NCBI RefSeq assembly: GCF_002280785.1
Contig: NZ_NCEQ01000013.1
Span: 62,001-126,000 of the forward strand
Direction of reading: 5' to 3'
DNA length: 64,000 nucleotides
From: Brevundimonas subvibrioides
GTDB lineage: Bacteria; Pseudomonadota; Alphaproteobacteria; Caulobacterales; Caulobacteraceae
Of the stretch, positions 3,767 to 49,161 are shown piece after piece. Below the pieces are notes generated by a model that had not been told where the DNA came from, did no database searches, and saw only the letters and a list, made by a program, of their open reading frames with translations. The position numbers and the translations under genes are program-made. Position 1 is the first letter of the stretch, and each line of letters begins with the position of its first letter.

Positions 3767-3926
3767 CCTTCTCCCCTTGCGGGAGAAGGTGGCAGCCGAA
3801 GGCTGACGGATGAGGGGTCGCACGGGCGGTCGGAGTGAGCGAAAGCCACGCAGGGCTTTGAGGTCAGCGTGACCCCTCATCCGACCTCGCTTCGCTCGGC
3901 CACCTTCTCCCGCAAGGGGAGAAGGG
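3767..3926. repeat. Palindromic intergenic repeat, family A
   Basis: Two perfect 26-bp inverted arms (3767-3792 and 3901-3926) each form their own hairpin (CTTCTCCC...GGGAGAAG). Inside them is a second inverted pair, GATGAGGGGTC / GACCCCTCATC. The centre of about 70 bp is not coding. The same arms recur around 6207-6254, 6653-6700, 36235-36442, 37728-37877 and 46343-46491. Confidence 0.85.
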
Positions 3927-3986: not shown

Positions 3987-4255
3987 CCAGCGTCACATTG
4001 GAGGCGTTCGGGTCGAGGACGCGGTTCAGCTGCGCCCGACCTGATCCCTCTCCCGGTGGGAGAGGGCTTGAGCCCCCGATCAAGTCGGGGGGCAGCGATG
4101 CGGCTAAGCCGAAAGGGTGAGGGGCGTGCCCTCACCGGTTGGCGACAAACCCCTCACCCTTTCGCGCGAAGAACACTCGCTGACGCTCGTGTGCTCAGCG
4201 TCTCCAGCGTCACATTGGAGGCGTTCGGGTCGAGGACGCGGTTCAGTTGCGCCCG
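3987..4255. repeat. 52-bp direct repeat flanking the inserted element
   Basis: Positions 3987-4038 and 4204-4255 are identical except for one base (4030 versus 4247). Both code for the same HTH segment of the broken regulator on the minus strand. Between them is 165 bp holding the family B repeat. Beyond the 52 bp the copies differ (codons for AAL versus ETL), so this is either a long target duplication that later drifted or recombination between two paralogues. Confidence 0.8.
4042..4192. repeat. Palindromic repeat, family B, copy 1
   Basis: Starts TGATCCCTCTCCC with a hairpin (CCCTCTCCC ggt GGGAGAGGG), and holds a second inverted pair GGGTGAGGGG / CCCCTCACCC. The 99-bp core 4094-4192 is identical to 5157-5255. 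It interrupts the XRE-like gene. Confidence 0.85.
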
Positions 4256-5112: not shown

Positions 5113-5255
5113 TGATCCCTCTCCCGGTGGGAGAGGGCTTGAGGCTCGCAGAGCGGAGCGATGCGGCTAAGCCGAAAGGGTGAGGGGCGTGCCCTCACCG
5201 GTTGGCGACAAACCCCTCACCCTTTCGCGCGAAGAACACTCGCTGACGCTCGTGT
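5113..5255. repeat. Palindromic repeat, family B, copy 2
   Basis: Same start (TGATCCCTCTCCC) and the same 99-bp core as copy 1 at 4042-4192. The segment just inside the first hairpin differs in length and sequence. It lies about 75 bp upstream of the EF-hand gene start, so it may affect that promoter. Confidence 0.85.
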
Positions 5256-5465
5256 CGCGACCCGGAGGGCGGCGCGTCGCAGCCAACCTGTCGCACACGG
5301 TTTCGCTGAGACATTTCGCCTTCGCTTCGGCGCCGCTGGGTCCCCCGGTCTCGCTGCGCTCGCCGGAGGATGACGAAAGGGGCGGGCGGGGGACGTACCG
5401 GCGGACGAACTGATCCCTTCTCCCCTTGCGGGAGAGGGATCGGAGTTTCGTGGTGAAGGATGGCG
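5256..5465. other. Intergenic, partial repeat copies
   Basis: No gene. Around 5318-5376 there is a partial repeat ending GGAGGATGACGAAAGG, related to the element at 5' of def (53813-53870). At 5412-5448 there is half of a family A hairpin (CTTCTCCCCTTGCGGGAGA). The stretch looks like nested, decayed repeats. Confidence 0.6.
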
Positions 5466-5607
5466 TCTCCTCCCCGTCGCGCAGCGATGGGGAGGTGGCT
5501 CGGAGCGAAGCGGAGAGACGGAGGGGGTCTTCCCGCGCGCAGAACCCCTCCGTCTGCTCGCGAAGAGCTCGCATCCACCTCCCCGTCGCTGCGCGACAGG
5601 GAGGAGA
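5466..5607. repeat. Palindromic repeat, family C, copy 1
   Basis: Inverted arms of 33 bp (5466-5498 and 5575-5607) match with two mismatches. They begin TCTCCTCCCCGTCGC. An inner pair, GACGGAGGGG / CCCCTCCGTC, sits between them. A second copy is at 30294-30442. Confidence 0.85.
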
Positions 5608-5655
5608 CAGGGGCTACGTCCGCTTCCGGCGCACCCGCGCGCTAGCCTCCTCCCC

Positions 5656-6206: not shown

Positions 6207-6254
6207 CCTTCTCCCCTTGCGGGAGAAGGTGCCCCGGAGGGGCGGATGAGGGGT
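6207..6254 (+). repeat. Left arm of 48-bp inverted repeat around DUF559 gene
   Basis: A family A arm (starts CCTTCTCCCCTTGCGGGAGA). It is the reverse complement of 6653-6700 with one mismatch. It begins 5 bp after the stop of the HTH gene. Confidence 0.9.
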
Positions 6255-6287
6255 GAAACACCGCCGTTCGCCGGTTAGCCTCGGACC

Positions 6288-6647
6288 ATGTTGAAGCCGT
6301 CCGATCGCACCCGATCAAACGCCCGTCGCGGACGCAGCGATCCGACGCTCCCGGAAGCCCTCTTCTGGAAGGTCCTGAGGGATCGGCGGATGGAGGGGCT
6401 GAAGTTCCGACGGCAGATGCCGCTGGGGCCGTACATCGCAGACTTCGCCTGTCCCTCGATCCGGCTGATCCTTGAGCTGGACGGCGGGGTGCATGTGCTG
6501 AGGGCCGAAAGCGATGCGGTGCGGGATGCGTGGCTGAGCGCGAACGGCTGGACCGTGATGCGGTTTGCCAATGAGGCGGTGTTGCAGAATCCGGCGCTGC
6601 TGTTTCAAGCGGTTCGGGATCATGCGGTGGGGTTCGGCGAGGGCTGA
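6288..6647 (+). CDS. DUF559 (Vsr-like fold) endonuclease-domain protein
   Basis: A 119-aa protein of the DUF559 family, which belongs to the PD-(D/E)xK/Vsr-like nuclease group. Visible motifs: LPEALFWKVLRDRR, KFRRQMPLGPYIADF (D52), and LELDGGVH (E63, D65, H69), the usual metal- and catalytic-site residues. The length is normal for the family, and all key residues are present, so it looks intact. The whole gene lies between two near-identical inverted family A arms, starting 33 bp inside the left arm and ending 5 bp before the right arm. The cassette (6207-6700) fits exactly between the stops of two convergent genes. The biological substrate of DUF559 proteins is not established. Confidence 0.88.
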   Translation: MLKPSDRTRSNARRGRSDPTLPEALFWKVLRDRRMEGLKFRRQMPLGPYIADFACPSIRLILELDGGVHVLRAESDAVRDAWLSANGWTVMRFANEAVLQNPALLFQAVRDHAVGFGEG

Positions 6648-6652
6648 AGCTT

Positions 6653-6700
6653 ACCCCTCATCCGCCCCTGCGGGGCACCTTCTCCCGCAAGGGGAGAAGG
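6653..6700 (-). repeat. Right arm of 48-bp inverted repeat around DUF559 gene
   Basis: Reverse complement of 6207-6254 with a single mismatch. It ends 3 bp before the stop codon of the convergent oxidoreductase gene, and can form a hairpin by itself. Confidence 0.9.
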
Positions 6701-30293: not shown

Positions 30294-30442
30294 CGTCTCC
30301 TCCCCGTCCGAAGGATGGGGAGGTGGCAGCGAGCCCTTCGCGAGCTGACGGAGGGGTTCTTTCCGCCGTTAGAACCCCTCCGTCTCTTCGCTTCGCTACG
30401 AGCCACCTCCCCATTCGCCAAGCCGCGAACGGGGAGGAGACG
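30294..30442. repeat. Palindromic repeat, family C, copy 2
   Basis: Inverted ends CGTCTCCTCCCCGT / ACGGGGAGGAGACG, with inner pair GACGGAGGGGTTCT / AGAACCCCTCCGTC. It fills the gap between two convergent genes, 11 bp after the regulator's stop and 15 bp before the isomerase's stop. Confidence 0.85.
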
Positions 30443-37727: not shown

Positions 37728-37877
37728 CCCCTTCTCCCCTCGGGGGAGAAGGTGAGCCCGAAGGGCTCGGATGAGGGGGCGGGTTCAGCGCCCGCATCGG
37801 CGAGAGCGAGGGGGCGGACACACCCCCCTCATCCGTCAGGCTCCGCCTGCCACCTTCTCCCCCGAGAGGGAGAAGGG
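37728..37877. repeat. Family A repeat between trmD and trxA
   Basis: Ends CCCCTTCTCCCCTCGGGGGA and CCCCCGAGAGGGAGAAGG form inverted arms with some mismatches, and GGATGAGGGGG / CCCCCTCATCC forms the inner pair. It fills nearly the whole gap between trmD's start (37715) and trxA's stop (37884). Confidence 0.85.
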
Positions 37878-45633: not shown

Positions 45634-46413
45634 TCATGTGCTCAGCCTGGCCTCGGCCTCGTCGCGCGCCTGGGGGTCGCCGACGTGCATCCAGTCGCCG
45701 TCGAGGACGCAGCCGTACAGTCGTCCGGCCGCAGCCGACGCCCGCCACAACGGGCTCAGCGAGAAGGGTCCGTCCGGCCCGCCGTCGGCATAGTCCGGCC
45801 GGGTGATGTGGACGCCCATATAGGCGAAGGGCGCAGAGGGAGCCTCGCCCCGGAAGGTCAGGCGTCCGTCGTCAGCGAGGAAGAAGTCGCCGTCGCCCTC
45901 GAAGCCGATCGCGCCCTCGCGGGTGGCGAGCAGCAGGCAGGCGTCCATCGTCACCGGGTCCCACAGGCGGACCAGTGCGTCGGCCCACGGGGCGTCGCCG
46001 CGATCCATCCAGACGCTGTCGATATTGGCCACGAAGACGGGCGCATCGCCGAGCAGGGGATGGGCCTTCTTCAAGCCGCCGCCGGTCTCCAGCAGTTCGG
46101 CGCGCTCGTCGGAAATGACGATCCCGGGGCCGCGTCCGCGCGCGGCCAGATGCGCCTCCAGCCGGTCGGCGAACCAGTGAGTATTGACCACCGCCTTCGT
46201 CACGCCCGCTTCCGCCAGCCTGTCCAGGACGTGGTCGATCAGGGCCCGGCCGCCGACCTCGACGAGGGCCTTGGGCCGGTCGTCGGTCAGGGGCCGCATC
46301 CGCGTGCCGAGGCCGGCGGCGAGAACCATGGCTGTGCGTGGTCCTTCTCCCCTCGGGGGAGAAGGCGCCCGGAGGGCGGATGAGGGGGAGATGTCCACGA
46401 ATTCGCTGCTCAC
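45634..46413 (-). CDS. murU: N-acetylmuramate 1-phosphate uridylyltransferase MurU
   Basis: A nucleotidyltransferase of cell-wall recycling that makes UDP-MurNAc from MurNAc-1-P. Motif TAMVLAAGLGTRMRPLTDDR begins at residue 27, then RPKALVEVGGRALIDHVLDR and the metal site VANIDSVW. The frame starts at GTG 46413 inside a palindromic repeat, with GGAGG 7 bases upstream, giving about 26 extra residues (SSALRAPSPPRGEGPR) coded by the repeat. If it starts at ATG 46329 the product is 231 aa but begins unusually close to the nucleotide motif. The GTG overlaps the stop of a 32-codon ORF, which in turn overlaps amgK's stop. Confidence 0.85.
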   Translation of the reverse strand: MSSEFVDISPSSALRAPSPPRGEGPRTAMVLAAGLGTRMRPLTDDRPKALVEVGGRALIDHVLDRLAEAGVTKAVVNTHWFADRLEAHLAARGRGPGIVISDERAELLETGGGLKKAHPLLGDAPVFVANIDSVWMDRGDAPWADALVRLWDPVTMDACLLLATREGAIGFEGDGDFFLADDGRLTFRGEAPSAPFAYMGVHITRPDYADGGPDGPFSLSPLWRASAAAGRLYGCVLDGDWMHVGDPQARDEAEARLST

Positions 46414-46491
46414 CGGTTGGCCTCCGTTTTGGAGGCGGCAGCCCCCTCATCCGCCCGCTTCGCGGCCACCTTCTCCCCCGAGGGGAGAAGG
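46343..46491. repeat. Family A repeat inserted at the 5' end of murU
   Basis: Inverted arms CCTTCTCCCCTCGGGGGAGA (46343 on) and TTCTCCCCCGAGGGGAGAAG (46471-46490), with inner pair GGATGAGGGGG / CCCCCTCATCC. The central part supplies a ribosome site and GTG start for murU on the minus strand. Confidence 0.88.
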
Positions 46492-48964: not shown

Positions 48965-49018
48965 CCGCGCCCCTTGTCGCCTCTGGCGGGAACACAGGCA
49001 AGCGTGTCCGCCCCTTCC

Positions 49019-49135
49019 GTGCCCCCCGGCGAAGGCCGGGGTCCAGATCGAGGATACAGGGGACCGGGCTTGCGAGGGCGACGTGACCAGAGCCCTGCCT
49101 TTTCCGTCTGGACCCCGGCCTTCGCCGGGGTGCAC
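49019..49135. repeat. Palindromic repeat, family E
   Basis: Arms of 28 bp (49019-49046 and 49108-49135) are inverted copies with one mismatch; each holds a hairpin of CCCCGGC / GCCGGGG around GAAG. CCCCGGCGAAGGCCGGGGTC repeats are frequent in alphaproteobacteria. It lies between two divergent genes. Confidence 0.88.
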
Positions 49136-49161
49136 GGTGGGGAGATACCGAGGGGGCTCCC

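What the first reader, a model, noticed from the sequence alone, without database searches (positions are those of the whole stretch)
6207..6700. DUF559 nuclease gene enclosed between the arms of a palindromic repeat
Two 48-bp arms, inverted and identical but for one base, flank an intact DUF559 (Vsr-like fold) gene. The whole 494-bp unit sits exactly between the stops of two convergent genes. The same arms at 3767-3926 and other sites enclose only about 70-110 bp of non-coding DNA. So the nuclease version looks like a full, possibly active form of the common repeat, with the short ones as internally deleted copies. This parallels REP elements with their transposases (RAYTs), but with a different protein family. 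I know of no description of DUF559 as the partner of such repeats.
Basis: partly seen in the sequence, partly recalled or inferred. Interest (0 to 1): 0.85.

Follow-up and report, generated by a model that had tools for sequence, protein, structure and literature searches.

The report
Nuclease gene paired with palindromic repeats
A small DNA-cutting enzyme of unknown role (DUF559) often sits, in bacteria from several phyla, between or beside palindromic repeats that match its own lineage, which looks like a second, independently evolved version of the REP-repeat and transposase partnership and may explain who spreads these common repeats.

Summary
In detail: a 119-aa DUF559 nuclease gene (6288-6647) lies between inverted 48-bp arms (47/48 identical) that fill the gap between two convergent genes. 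The association is general. In the same genus 96 of 135 usable DUF559 genes have inverted flanking arms scoring above all 5301 background windows, against 0 of 27 ParE genes. It recurs in part of the DUF559 genes of other Proteobacteria and of several other phyla. Repeat families follow the nuclease tree (17 label changes; shuffled mean 54). Two repeat subfamilies are more numerous in genomes holding their own nuclease clade, not each other's. RAYT-type transposases were found in 1 of 41 genomes. Arms fold into two hairpins; the second covaries and mostly has a GNA loop. At one orthologous site 15 genomes are empty, 13 hold the nuclease element and 11 hold short inserts; the seven short inserts read were of other repeat families. 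Near-identical nucleases share their site; relocation is rare. So it works like RAYT/REPIN but with an unrelated EDxHD (Vsr-like) nuclease. Mobilisation itself is inferred, not shown.

The parts
6207..6254 (+). left arm, repeat family A: HP1 hairpin, HP2 hairpin (GGA triloop), GGATGAGGGGT tail facing the gene
6288..6647 (+). DUF559 (EDxHD / Vsr-like) nuclease gene, 119 aa
   Evidence: PF04480 E 1.4e-33; E23, D52, E63, D65, H69, D76 invariant in 92 genus domains; fold like 3hrl and I-Bth0305I
6653..6700 (-). right arm, family A, inverted (GCA triloop)
3767..3925 (.). short family-A element, 159 bp: two inverted arms, 55-bp spacer, no gene
37730..37876 (.). short family-A element of the CTCGG-loop type (A2), 147 bp
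46343..46491 (.). short family-A element of the A2 type
   Evidence: (I24)
5465..5608 (.). short element of the GTCTCCTCCCC type (family B/C-like)
   Evidence: I7
4046..4123 (+). arm of family E2
5117..5186 (+). arm of family E2

Best explanation
DUF559 is the dedicated partner enzyme of a large class of intergenic palindromic repeats, the counterpart of the RAYT transposase for REPs/REPINs. SHOWN by sequence: nuclease clades are flanked by their own repeat families; the same families recur in the genome as gene-less arms and arm pairs; for two subfamilies repeat number follows the cognate nuclease; arms conserve hairpins; the catalytic residues are kept under purifying selection; insert-bearing and empty orthologous sites both exist. 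INFERRED: the nuclease binds the folded arm (HP1, GNA-looped HP2 and G-rich tail), most likely when one strand is single-stranded at replication, cuts at its foot, and host repair or template switching copies the arm pair into a new intergenic site. A hydrolytic nuclease of this fold is not expected to rejoin strands itself (general knowledge), so joining would be the host's. The nuclease gene mostly stays in place and is inherited vertically; it moves with its arms only rarely.
For: Flanking arms: genus 96 of 135 usable loci (136 of 150 matches fetched) at score >=20.5, background maximum 19.5 of 5301 windows with the same 450-bp flanks; ParE control 0 of 27 usable of 30, maximum 17. Breadth: 34 of 70 phylum loci outside the genus at >=20 against 5 of 864 background windows; 54 of 78 usable of 80 named loci, or 43 of 66 after taking out 12 Brevundimonas or near-Brevundimonas records, against 3 of 975 background windows. 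Cognate families: 17 label changes on the DUF559 tree against a shuffled mean of 54.1; in 484 kb of the own genome the five families found are those whose nucleases it carries, the four others are absent. Copy number, arms beside nucleases removed: A1 repeats median 7.5 with (16 genomes) against 2 without (25) the A1 nuclease, p 0.0006; A2 5 against 0, p 0.007; crossed controls p 0.39 each. Structure: HP2 98.1% paired in 42 arms against 64.7% shuffled, GNA loop in 40 of 42. RAYT-type transposase in 1 of 41 genomes, none in the own. Site states. dN/dS median 0.16.
Against: No movement was seen, and no within-species polymorphism was found: four A. brasilense records all carry the gene at one site. 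39 of 135 genus loci, 36 of 70 phylum loci and 24 of 78 named loci lack paired arms at the threshold. The own genome has A2-type repeats (8 pattern hits) without an A2 nuclease, and several other genomes without the cognate nuclease hold a few to 23 copies. G013 (85% complete) and G025 (70%) have 17 and 6 hairpins of the general pattern without a detected DUF559. DUF559 genes of E. coli, N. gonorrhoeae, Methylobacterium aquaticum, Thermoactinomyces, Synechocystis and Picosynechococcus records have no paired arms. No target-site duplication was found. GNA loops are not dominant in families C, E, E2 and F. One of 44 added genus loci lacks the ExDGxxH motif. A Caulobacter DUF559 protein (VsrA) has been proposed as a mismatch-repair enzyme (PMC12907096, passages).
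Confidence: 0.65

Rival explanations
1. The repeats are mobilised by other machinery (or are terminators under selection), and the DUF559 nuclease only binds the palindromes beside it, for example as operator or protected substrate; DUF559 is a passenger or host repair factor.
For: Arms are strong hairpins; a Caulobacter DUF559 is reported to affect DNA damage and was proposed as a VSP-repair enzyme (PMC12907096, passages); short elements occur without the partner.
Against: Does not predict that repeat family tracks nuclease clade or that dispersed copy number follows the cognate and not the other clade; ParE genes in the same genomes are not flanked.
Confidence: 0.2
2. It is a homing-endonuclease element: the nuclease cuts arm-free target sites and is copied in by recombination; the arms are its ends and short copies are relics.
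For: The nearest fold outside the family is the EDxHD homing endonuclease I-Bth0305I; occupied and empty alleles of one site exist.
Against: Homing copies into the same allele and needs flanking homology (general knowledge); repeats lie at many unrelated sites, and the seven short inserts read at one site were not of the nuclease's own family there.
Confidence: 0.09
3. Ordinary IS/MITE: DUF559 as transposase with terminal inverted repeats, the short copies being internal deletions.
For: Inverted arms around one gene; short gene-less copies; a slight excess of spacer similarity to nuclease interiors.
Against: No target-site duplication in 76 elements; short spacers largely unlike the nuclease interior; near-identical nucleases share their site; the arms are composite hairpins whose HP2 often differs between the two ends.
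Confidence: 0.06

Closest known systems
REP/REPIN repeats with RAYT (TnpA-REP) transposases
   Same: dedicated enzyme gene beside its own palindromic repeat family; inverted pairs (REPIN-like) dispersed in intergenic DNA; several enzyme-repeat pairs per genome; matched lineages; mostly vertical enzyme; no target duplication seen
   Different: enzyme is an EDxHD/Vsr-like nuclease, not a HUH tyrosine transposase; arms carry no GTAG tag and in the genus consist of two hairpins plus a G-rich tail; found where RAYT-type transposases are nearly absent
CGTC-tagged REPs (PMC3733652, passages), described there as lacking a dedicated transposase and present in C. crescentus
   Same: palindromic repeats without a known enzyme; 11 of 22 family-B arms carry CGTC near the 5' foot
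   Different: 20 of 243 arms in all carry it there, so it does not define the class; identity with the published families was not tested
EDxHD homing endonucleases (I-Bth0305I) and Vsr mismatch endonucleases
   Same: fold and catalytic residues
   Different: no intron or intein, stand-alone domain, flanked by dispersed palindromes
Caulobacter VsrA (CCNA_02930), a DUF559 protein proposed for VSP repair (PMC12907096)
   Same: DUF559 domain according to that paper
   Different: that paper's main text holds neither 'palindrom' nor 'inverted repeat'; its flanks were not examined here

Membership tests
REP/REPIN-RAYT | HUH Y1 transposase (PF01797) as partner | tested here: not met
   0 in own genome, 1 of 41 genus genomes; the partner gene is PF04480
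REP/REPIN-RAYT | GTAG tag at the foot of the palindrome | tested here: not met
   GTAG near the 5' foot in 3 of 243 arms; definition from PMC3733652 and PMC8266576 (passages)
CGTC-tagged REPs | CGTC tag at the foot of the palindrome | tested here: inconclusive
   20 of 243 arms, of which 11 of the 22 family-B arms
REP/REPIN-RAYT | enzyme gene flanked by its own repeat family, families matched to enzyme lineages | tested here: met
REP/REPIN-RAYT | repeats occur as inverted pairs | tested here: met
   A pairs of 139-159 bp in the own genome; 35 short pairs in the genus loci
REP/REPIN-RAYT | enzyme acts on single-stranded cognate repeat | not testable with these tools
   only hairpin covariation and strand-asymmetric GNA loops
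IS/MITE | target-site duplication | tested here: not met
   76 elements; k=2,3,5-9 at or below expectation, k=4 2 against 0.34 expected
IS/MITE | short copies are internal deletions of the full element | tested here: not met
   32 spacers, slight excess only
EDxHD / Vsr-like nuclease fold | fold and catalytic residues | tested here: met
   PDB profile search 3hrl 8e-36, 3r3p 9e-4; Foldseek 3hrl 1.2e-7, 3r3p 3.6e-3, Vsr 1cw0 0.18; invariant residues
VSP-repair Vsr | T:G mismatch cleavage, partner cytosine methyltransferase | not tested
   no assay possible; linkage to methyltransferases not surveyed
Homing endonuclease | cuts the empty site and is copied into it | tested here: inconclusive
   empty and occupied alleles seen, cleavage not testable

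The most novel reading that the evidence does not exclude
A second, independently evolved class of enzyme-repeat symbiosis, spread over several bacterial phyla, in which hydrolytic EDxHD nucleases (DUF559) instead of HUH transposases spread and maintain cognate palindromic repeats; it would account for a large part of the pyrimidine-rich CCCTCTCCC-type intergenic palindromes of bacteria and give DUF559 its function.
Probability: 0.6. Interest if true: 0.92.

Novelty: new variant of a known kind. Interest (0 to 1): 0.86.

Why it matters
DUF559 is a widespread family named only as unknown function or endonuclease domain, and such pyrimidine-rich palindromes are common repeats for which I found no known mover. 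Pairing the two makes both testable: which DNA the nuclease cuts, and who copies the repeats. It would show that the RAYT/REPIN lifestyle evolved more than once from unrelated enzymes, and it gives another reading for DUF559 proteins now taken for mismatch-repair enzymes.

Tried and rejected
Rejected: chance; RAYT as hidden mobiliser; phage-borne cargo (4 of 50,697 phage records at E 1e-5; 1 locus in viral contigs by a single-protein scan that reaches close relatives only); short copies as deleted nuclease elements; ordinary TSD-making IS. Led nowhere: strain-level empty sites in Azospirillum brasilense (four records, all occupied) and S. meliloti (no interpretable empty site in the 30 of 150 records listed); the window's own site in G022 (different neighbour), while G401 has the same convergent pair with a ~150-bp short element of another family and no DUF559. 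A first flank comparison by tblastx without masking gave spurious sharing in GC-rich DNA and was replaced by blastn. The first backgrounds used 400-bp flanks while the genes were scored with 450-bp flanks; one search repeats the backgrounds with 450 bp: genus unchanged (96 of 135), own genome weaker (3 of 7 instead of 5 of 7 above every window). Dropped rows: 14 of 150 genus DUF559 matches (mostly fragments or contig ends) were not fetched; 1 of 136 was too near a contig end; 3 of 30 ParE loci were truncated; 2 of 80 named loci too short. Labels set by hand: L086 to B, L212 to none, E+E2 rows to E. The 44 loci added were classed by nearest neighbour, not by a new tree. The copy-number tests treat genomes as independent. 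Paper search listed 10 of 4444 papers and cannot show absence; one search was run instead.

Full report
WHAT IS THERE. The window lies in a 3.31-Mb genome (handle G000), probably Brevundimonas: the nearest named relatives are Brevundimonas and Caulobacteraceae records, and one of them, Brevundimonas sp. AAP58, has a contig of the same length as one of a same-genus handle. The gene 6288-6647 encodes 119 aa matching PF04480/DUF559 (E 1.4e-33). Arms 6207-6254 and 6653-6700 are inverted and 47/48 identical. Each arm folds as single-stranded DNA into two hairpins followed by the tail GGATGAGGGGT (z -3.5 and -2.8); the one mismatch between the arms is the middle base of the HP2 triloop (GGA/GCA). 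The element fills the space between the stop of a 181-aa ORF (6201) and the stop of a DsbA-like gene (6704).

IS IT MORE THAN CHANCE. I scored the best inverted local alignment between the flanks of each DUF559 domain. In 484 kb of the own genome the window gene scores 48; with 450-bp flanks the background maximum is 23 of 4633 windows and 3 of the 7 DUF559 genes exceed it; with 400-bp flanks 5 of 7 exceed all 4645 windows. Two genes have repeats on one side only. In 41 genomes of the genus 38 carry DUF559, 150 matches in all. I fetched 136: 96 of 135 usable score at least 20.5 (450-bp flanks), while the maximum of 5301 background windows is 19.5. As a control with another small, sporadic gene, ParE toxins of the same genomes give 0 of 27 usable (of 30), maximum 17.

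REPEAT FAMILIES ARE COGNATE. Nine arm families were written as patterns; at least one arm was found within 450 bp of 82 of 92 genes. On a maximum-likelihood tree of the 92 domains the family label needs 17 changes (least possible 9) against a shuffled mean of 54.1, 0 of 200 as low; family D is one clade at 100/100, while E2 is not clustered by itself and the 'none' rows hardly are. A few labels were set by hand (see Tried and rejected). In the own-genome sample, which includes all seven nuclease loci, five families occur (A 20, D 10, E2 9, C 9, B 5 arms), all with a nuclease in the genome; the other four patterns and the reversed-sequence control give 0. Leaving out arms within 450 bp of a nuclease, I count A 16, E2 8, D 6, C 6, B 3 from the positions. 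Against strictness: within A, the subtype A2 occurs in the own genome without an A2 nuclease.

COPY NUMBER FOLLOWS THE COGNATE NUCLEASE. Pattern counts in the 41 genomes, with arms beside nucleases removed: A1 repeats median 7.5 in 16 genomes with an A1-type nuclease, 2 in 25 without (p 0.0006); A2 repeats 5 in 16 against 0 in 25 (p 0.007). Crossed comparisons: p 0.39 and 0.39. In genomes at least 90% complete: p 0.0013 and 0.019. Ranges overlap (a genome without the A1 nuclease has 23 copies, one with it has none outside its locus). Genomes are not independent; no phylogenetic correction was made. G024 (99% complete, no DUF559 found) has no hairpin of the general pattern; G013 (85%) and G025 (70%), also without DUF559, have 17 and 6.

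ARM STRUCTURE. In 42 distinct 51-nt A arms the HP2 stem pairs in 98.1% of cells (shuffled mean 64.7, maximum 71.4; slid 25-34%) with 2-4 Watson-Crick types per pair, and the loop is GNA in 40 of 42. Over 243 arms, among those with an HP2 stem, GNA triloops are 76 of 88 in A, 10 of 10 in Ac, 21 of 22 in B, 15 of 20 in D, but 3 of 10 in E, 7 of 16 in E2, 2 of 5 in F, 2 of 8 in C; none of the 5 Ad arms has such a stem; the complementary TNC loop was found once, so one strand is favoured. That GCGNAGC mini-hairpins are unusually stable in DNA is recalled, not looked up. HP1 does not vary in these arms and so says nothing about pairing. GTAG, the REP tag, is near the 5' foot in 3 of 243 arms; CGTC is there in 20, of which 11 of the 22 family-B arms, a lead towards the CGTC REPs that PMC3733652 describes as lacking a transposase.

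THE ENZYME. E23, R41, R42, D52, E63, D65, G66, H69, D76 and R92 are invariant in the 92 genus domains, and R16, E23, D52, E63, D65, G66, H69, D76, R79 and R92 in the 77-row alignment A1. One of the 44 loci added later lacks the ExDGxxH motif, and one match contains a stop. The AlphaFold2 model (pLDDT 84, pTM 0.79) matches 3hrl, then the EDxHD homing endonuclease I-Bth0305I (3r3p), and more weakly Vsr; profile search agrees for the first two. Median dN/dS is 0.16 over pairs at 70% identity or more (99 of 107 with a value).

SITES AND MOVEMENT. With the joined flanks of the own D element (response-regulator stop / kinase start) as query, 41 genomes give 15 continuous empty sites, 13 inserts of about 460-555 bp with a DUF559, 11 inserts of about 130-160 bp, and 2 undetermined (G005, G023) in a listing that was cut at its end (33 loci read, 32 placed). 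The seven short inserts read belong to other families: four GTGGCGAGTGACGAG-like, two CCTCCCCC-like, one other. So the same tiny spot seems to have been invaded independently. Among the first 92 genes, pairs at 85% identity or more share flanks in 21 of 21 cases, 70-85% in 33 of 88, 60-70% in 45 of 231, 50-60% in 25 of 463. Seven named relatives of the window nuclease (57-87%, L353-L359) all have family-A arms but share no flank with the window or with each other by blastn, and neither neighbour protein of the window is near them. So the gene is mostly inherited in place and sometimes relocates with its arms. 76 elements show no target-site duplication (k=4: 2 against 0.34 expected; the other lengths at or below expectation).

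BREADTH. Loci of the phylum outside the genus: 34 of 70 at 20 or more (18 of 37 in the same class, 16 of 33 in other classes), background 5 of 864 windows with 450-bp flanks. Named loci: 54 of 78 usable of 80, background 3 of 975 windows; 12 of these 80 are Brevundimonas or near-Brevundimonas records that partly repeat genus loci, and without them it is 43 of 66. Records titled Nitrospirae/Nitrospira, Chloroflexi, Verrucomicrobia, Gemmataceae, NC10 and Binatia are among the positives. Plasmid-collection records: 6 of 12 (three of three Deinococcus, Pseudanabaena, Qipengyuania, Sphingomonas; not E. coli, N. gonorrhoeae, Methylobacterium, Thermoactinomyces, Synechocystis or Picosynechococcus) and 3 of 7 (Azospirillum lipoferum, Sphingomonas, S. 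meliloti; not the four A. brasilense records; the two whose letters were printed show an element upstream). The samples are biased to good family matches.

KNOWN WORK. RAYT/REPIN features were taken from passages of PMC3116915, PMC8266576 and PMC3733652: dedicated single-copy enzyme, cognate repeats beside it, inverted pairs, single-strand processing, GTAG tags. Architecture and inheritance agree; the enzyme superfamily and the GTAG tag do not. RAYT-type Y1 transposases are in 1 of 41 genomes. Library searches for DUF559 (14 papers), DUF559 with repeat (9), DUF559 with palindrom- (2, on CRISPR/secretion in Aliivibrio and on NAD metabolism), PF04480 (1) and Vsr with palindromic repeat and transposase (3) gave, from listings, no paper on such a partnership. 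Most subscription papers are outside this library. PMC12907096 (passages) describes a Caulobacter DUF559 protein, VsrA, as a putative mismatch endonuclease.

VERDICT. The association and its cognate nature are well supported in the genus and the association recurs well beyond it; that DUF559 mobilises or maintains the repeats is the best reading but rests on pattern, not on an observed reaction.

Noticed in passing
own genome C35:288534-288989 and orthologous sites (L230-L259): The gap between a response-regulator stop and a kinase start is an insertion hotspot: empty in 15 of 41 genomes, otherwise filled by different repeat families, including a GTGGCGAGTGACGAG/CTCGTCACTCGCCAC family with no enzyme identified.
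   Followed up: partly
family-B arms in genus loci: 11 of 22 family-B arms carry CGTC near the 5' foot, the tag of a published REP superfamily said to lack a transposase; whether they are the same repeats was not tested.
   Followed up: partly
L228 (S. meliloti Ak57 pSymB record): DUF559 gene lies between two near-identical whole palindromic elements in inverted orientation (score 104).
   Followed up: no
L229 (Vibrio phage 1.265.O): A DUF559-like stretch lies antisense within a gene annotated as hedgehog/hint domain protein, possibly an intein-associated nuclease.
   Followed up: no
window 49012-49142: Another inverted repeat type (CCCCGGCGAAGGCCGGGGTCCAG, arms 82% complementary, 31 nt apart).
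   Followed up: no
window 5487-5587 and 30314-30414: Two copies of a GTCTCCTCCCC-type short element, 86% complementary to each other.
   Followed up: no
L227, L349 (Sphingomonas parapaucimobilis records): DUF559 genes sit tightly inside core gene neighbourhoods, e.g. between a GatB/YqeY gene and dnaG and between transhydrogenase genes.
   Followed up: no
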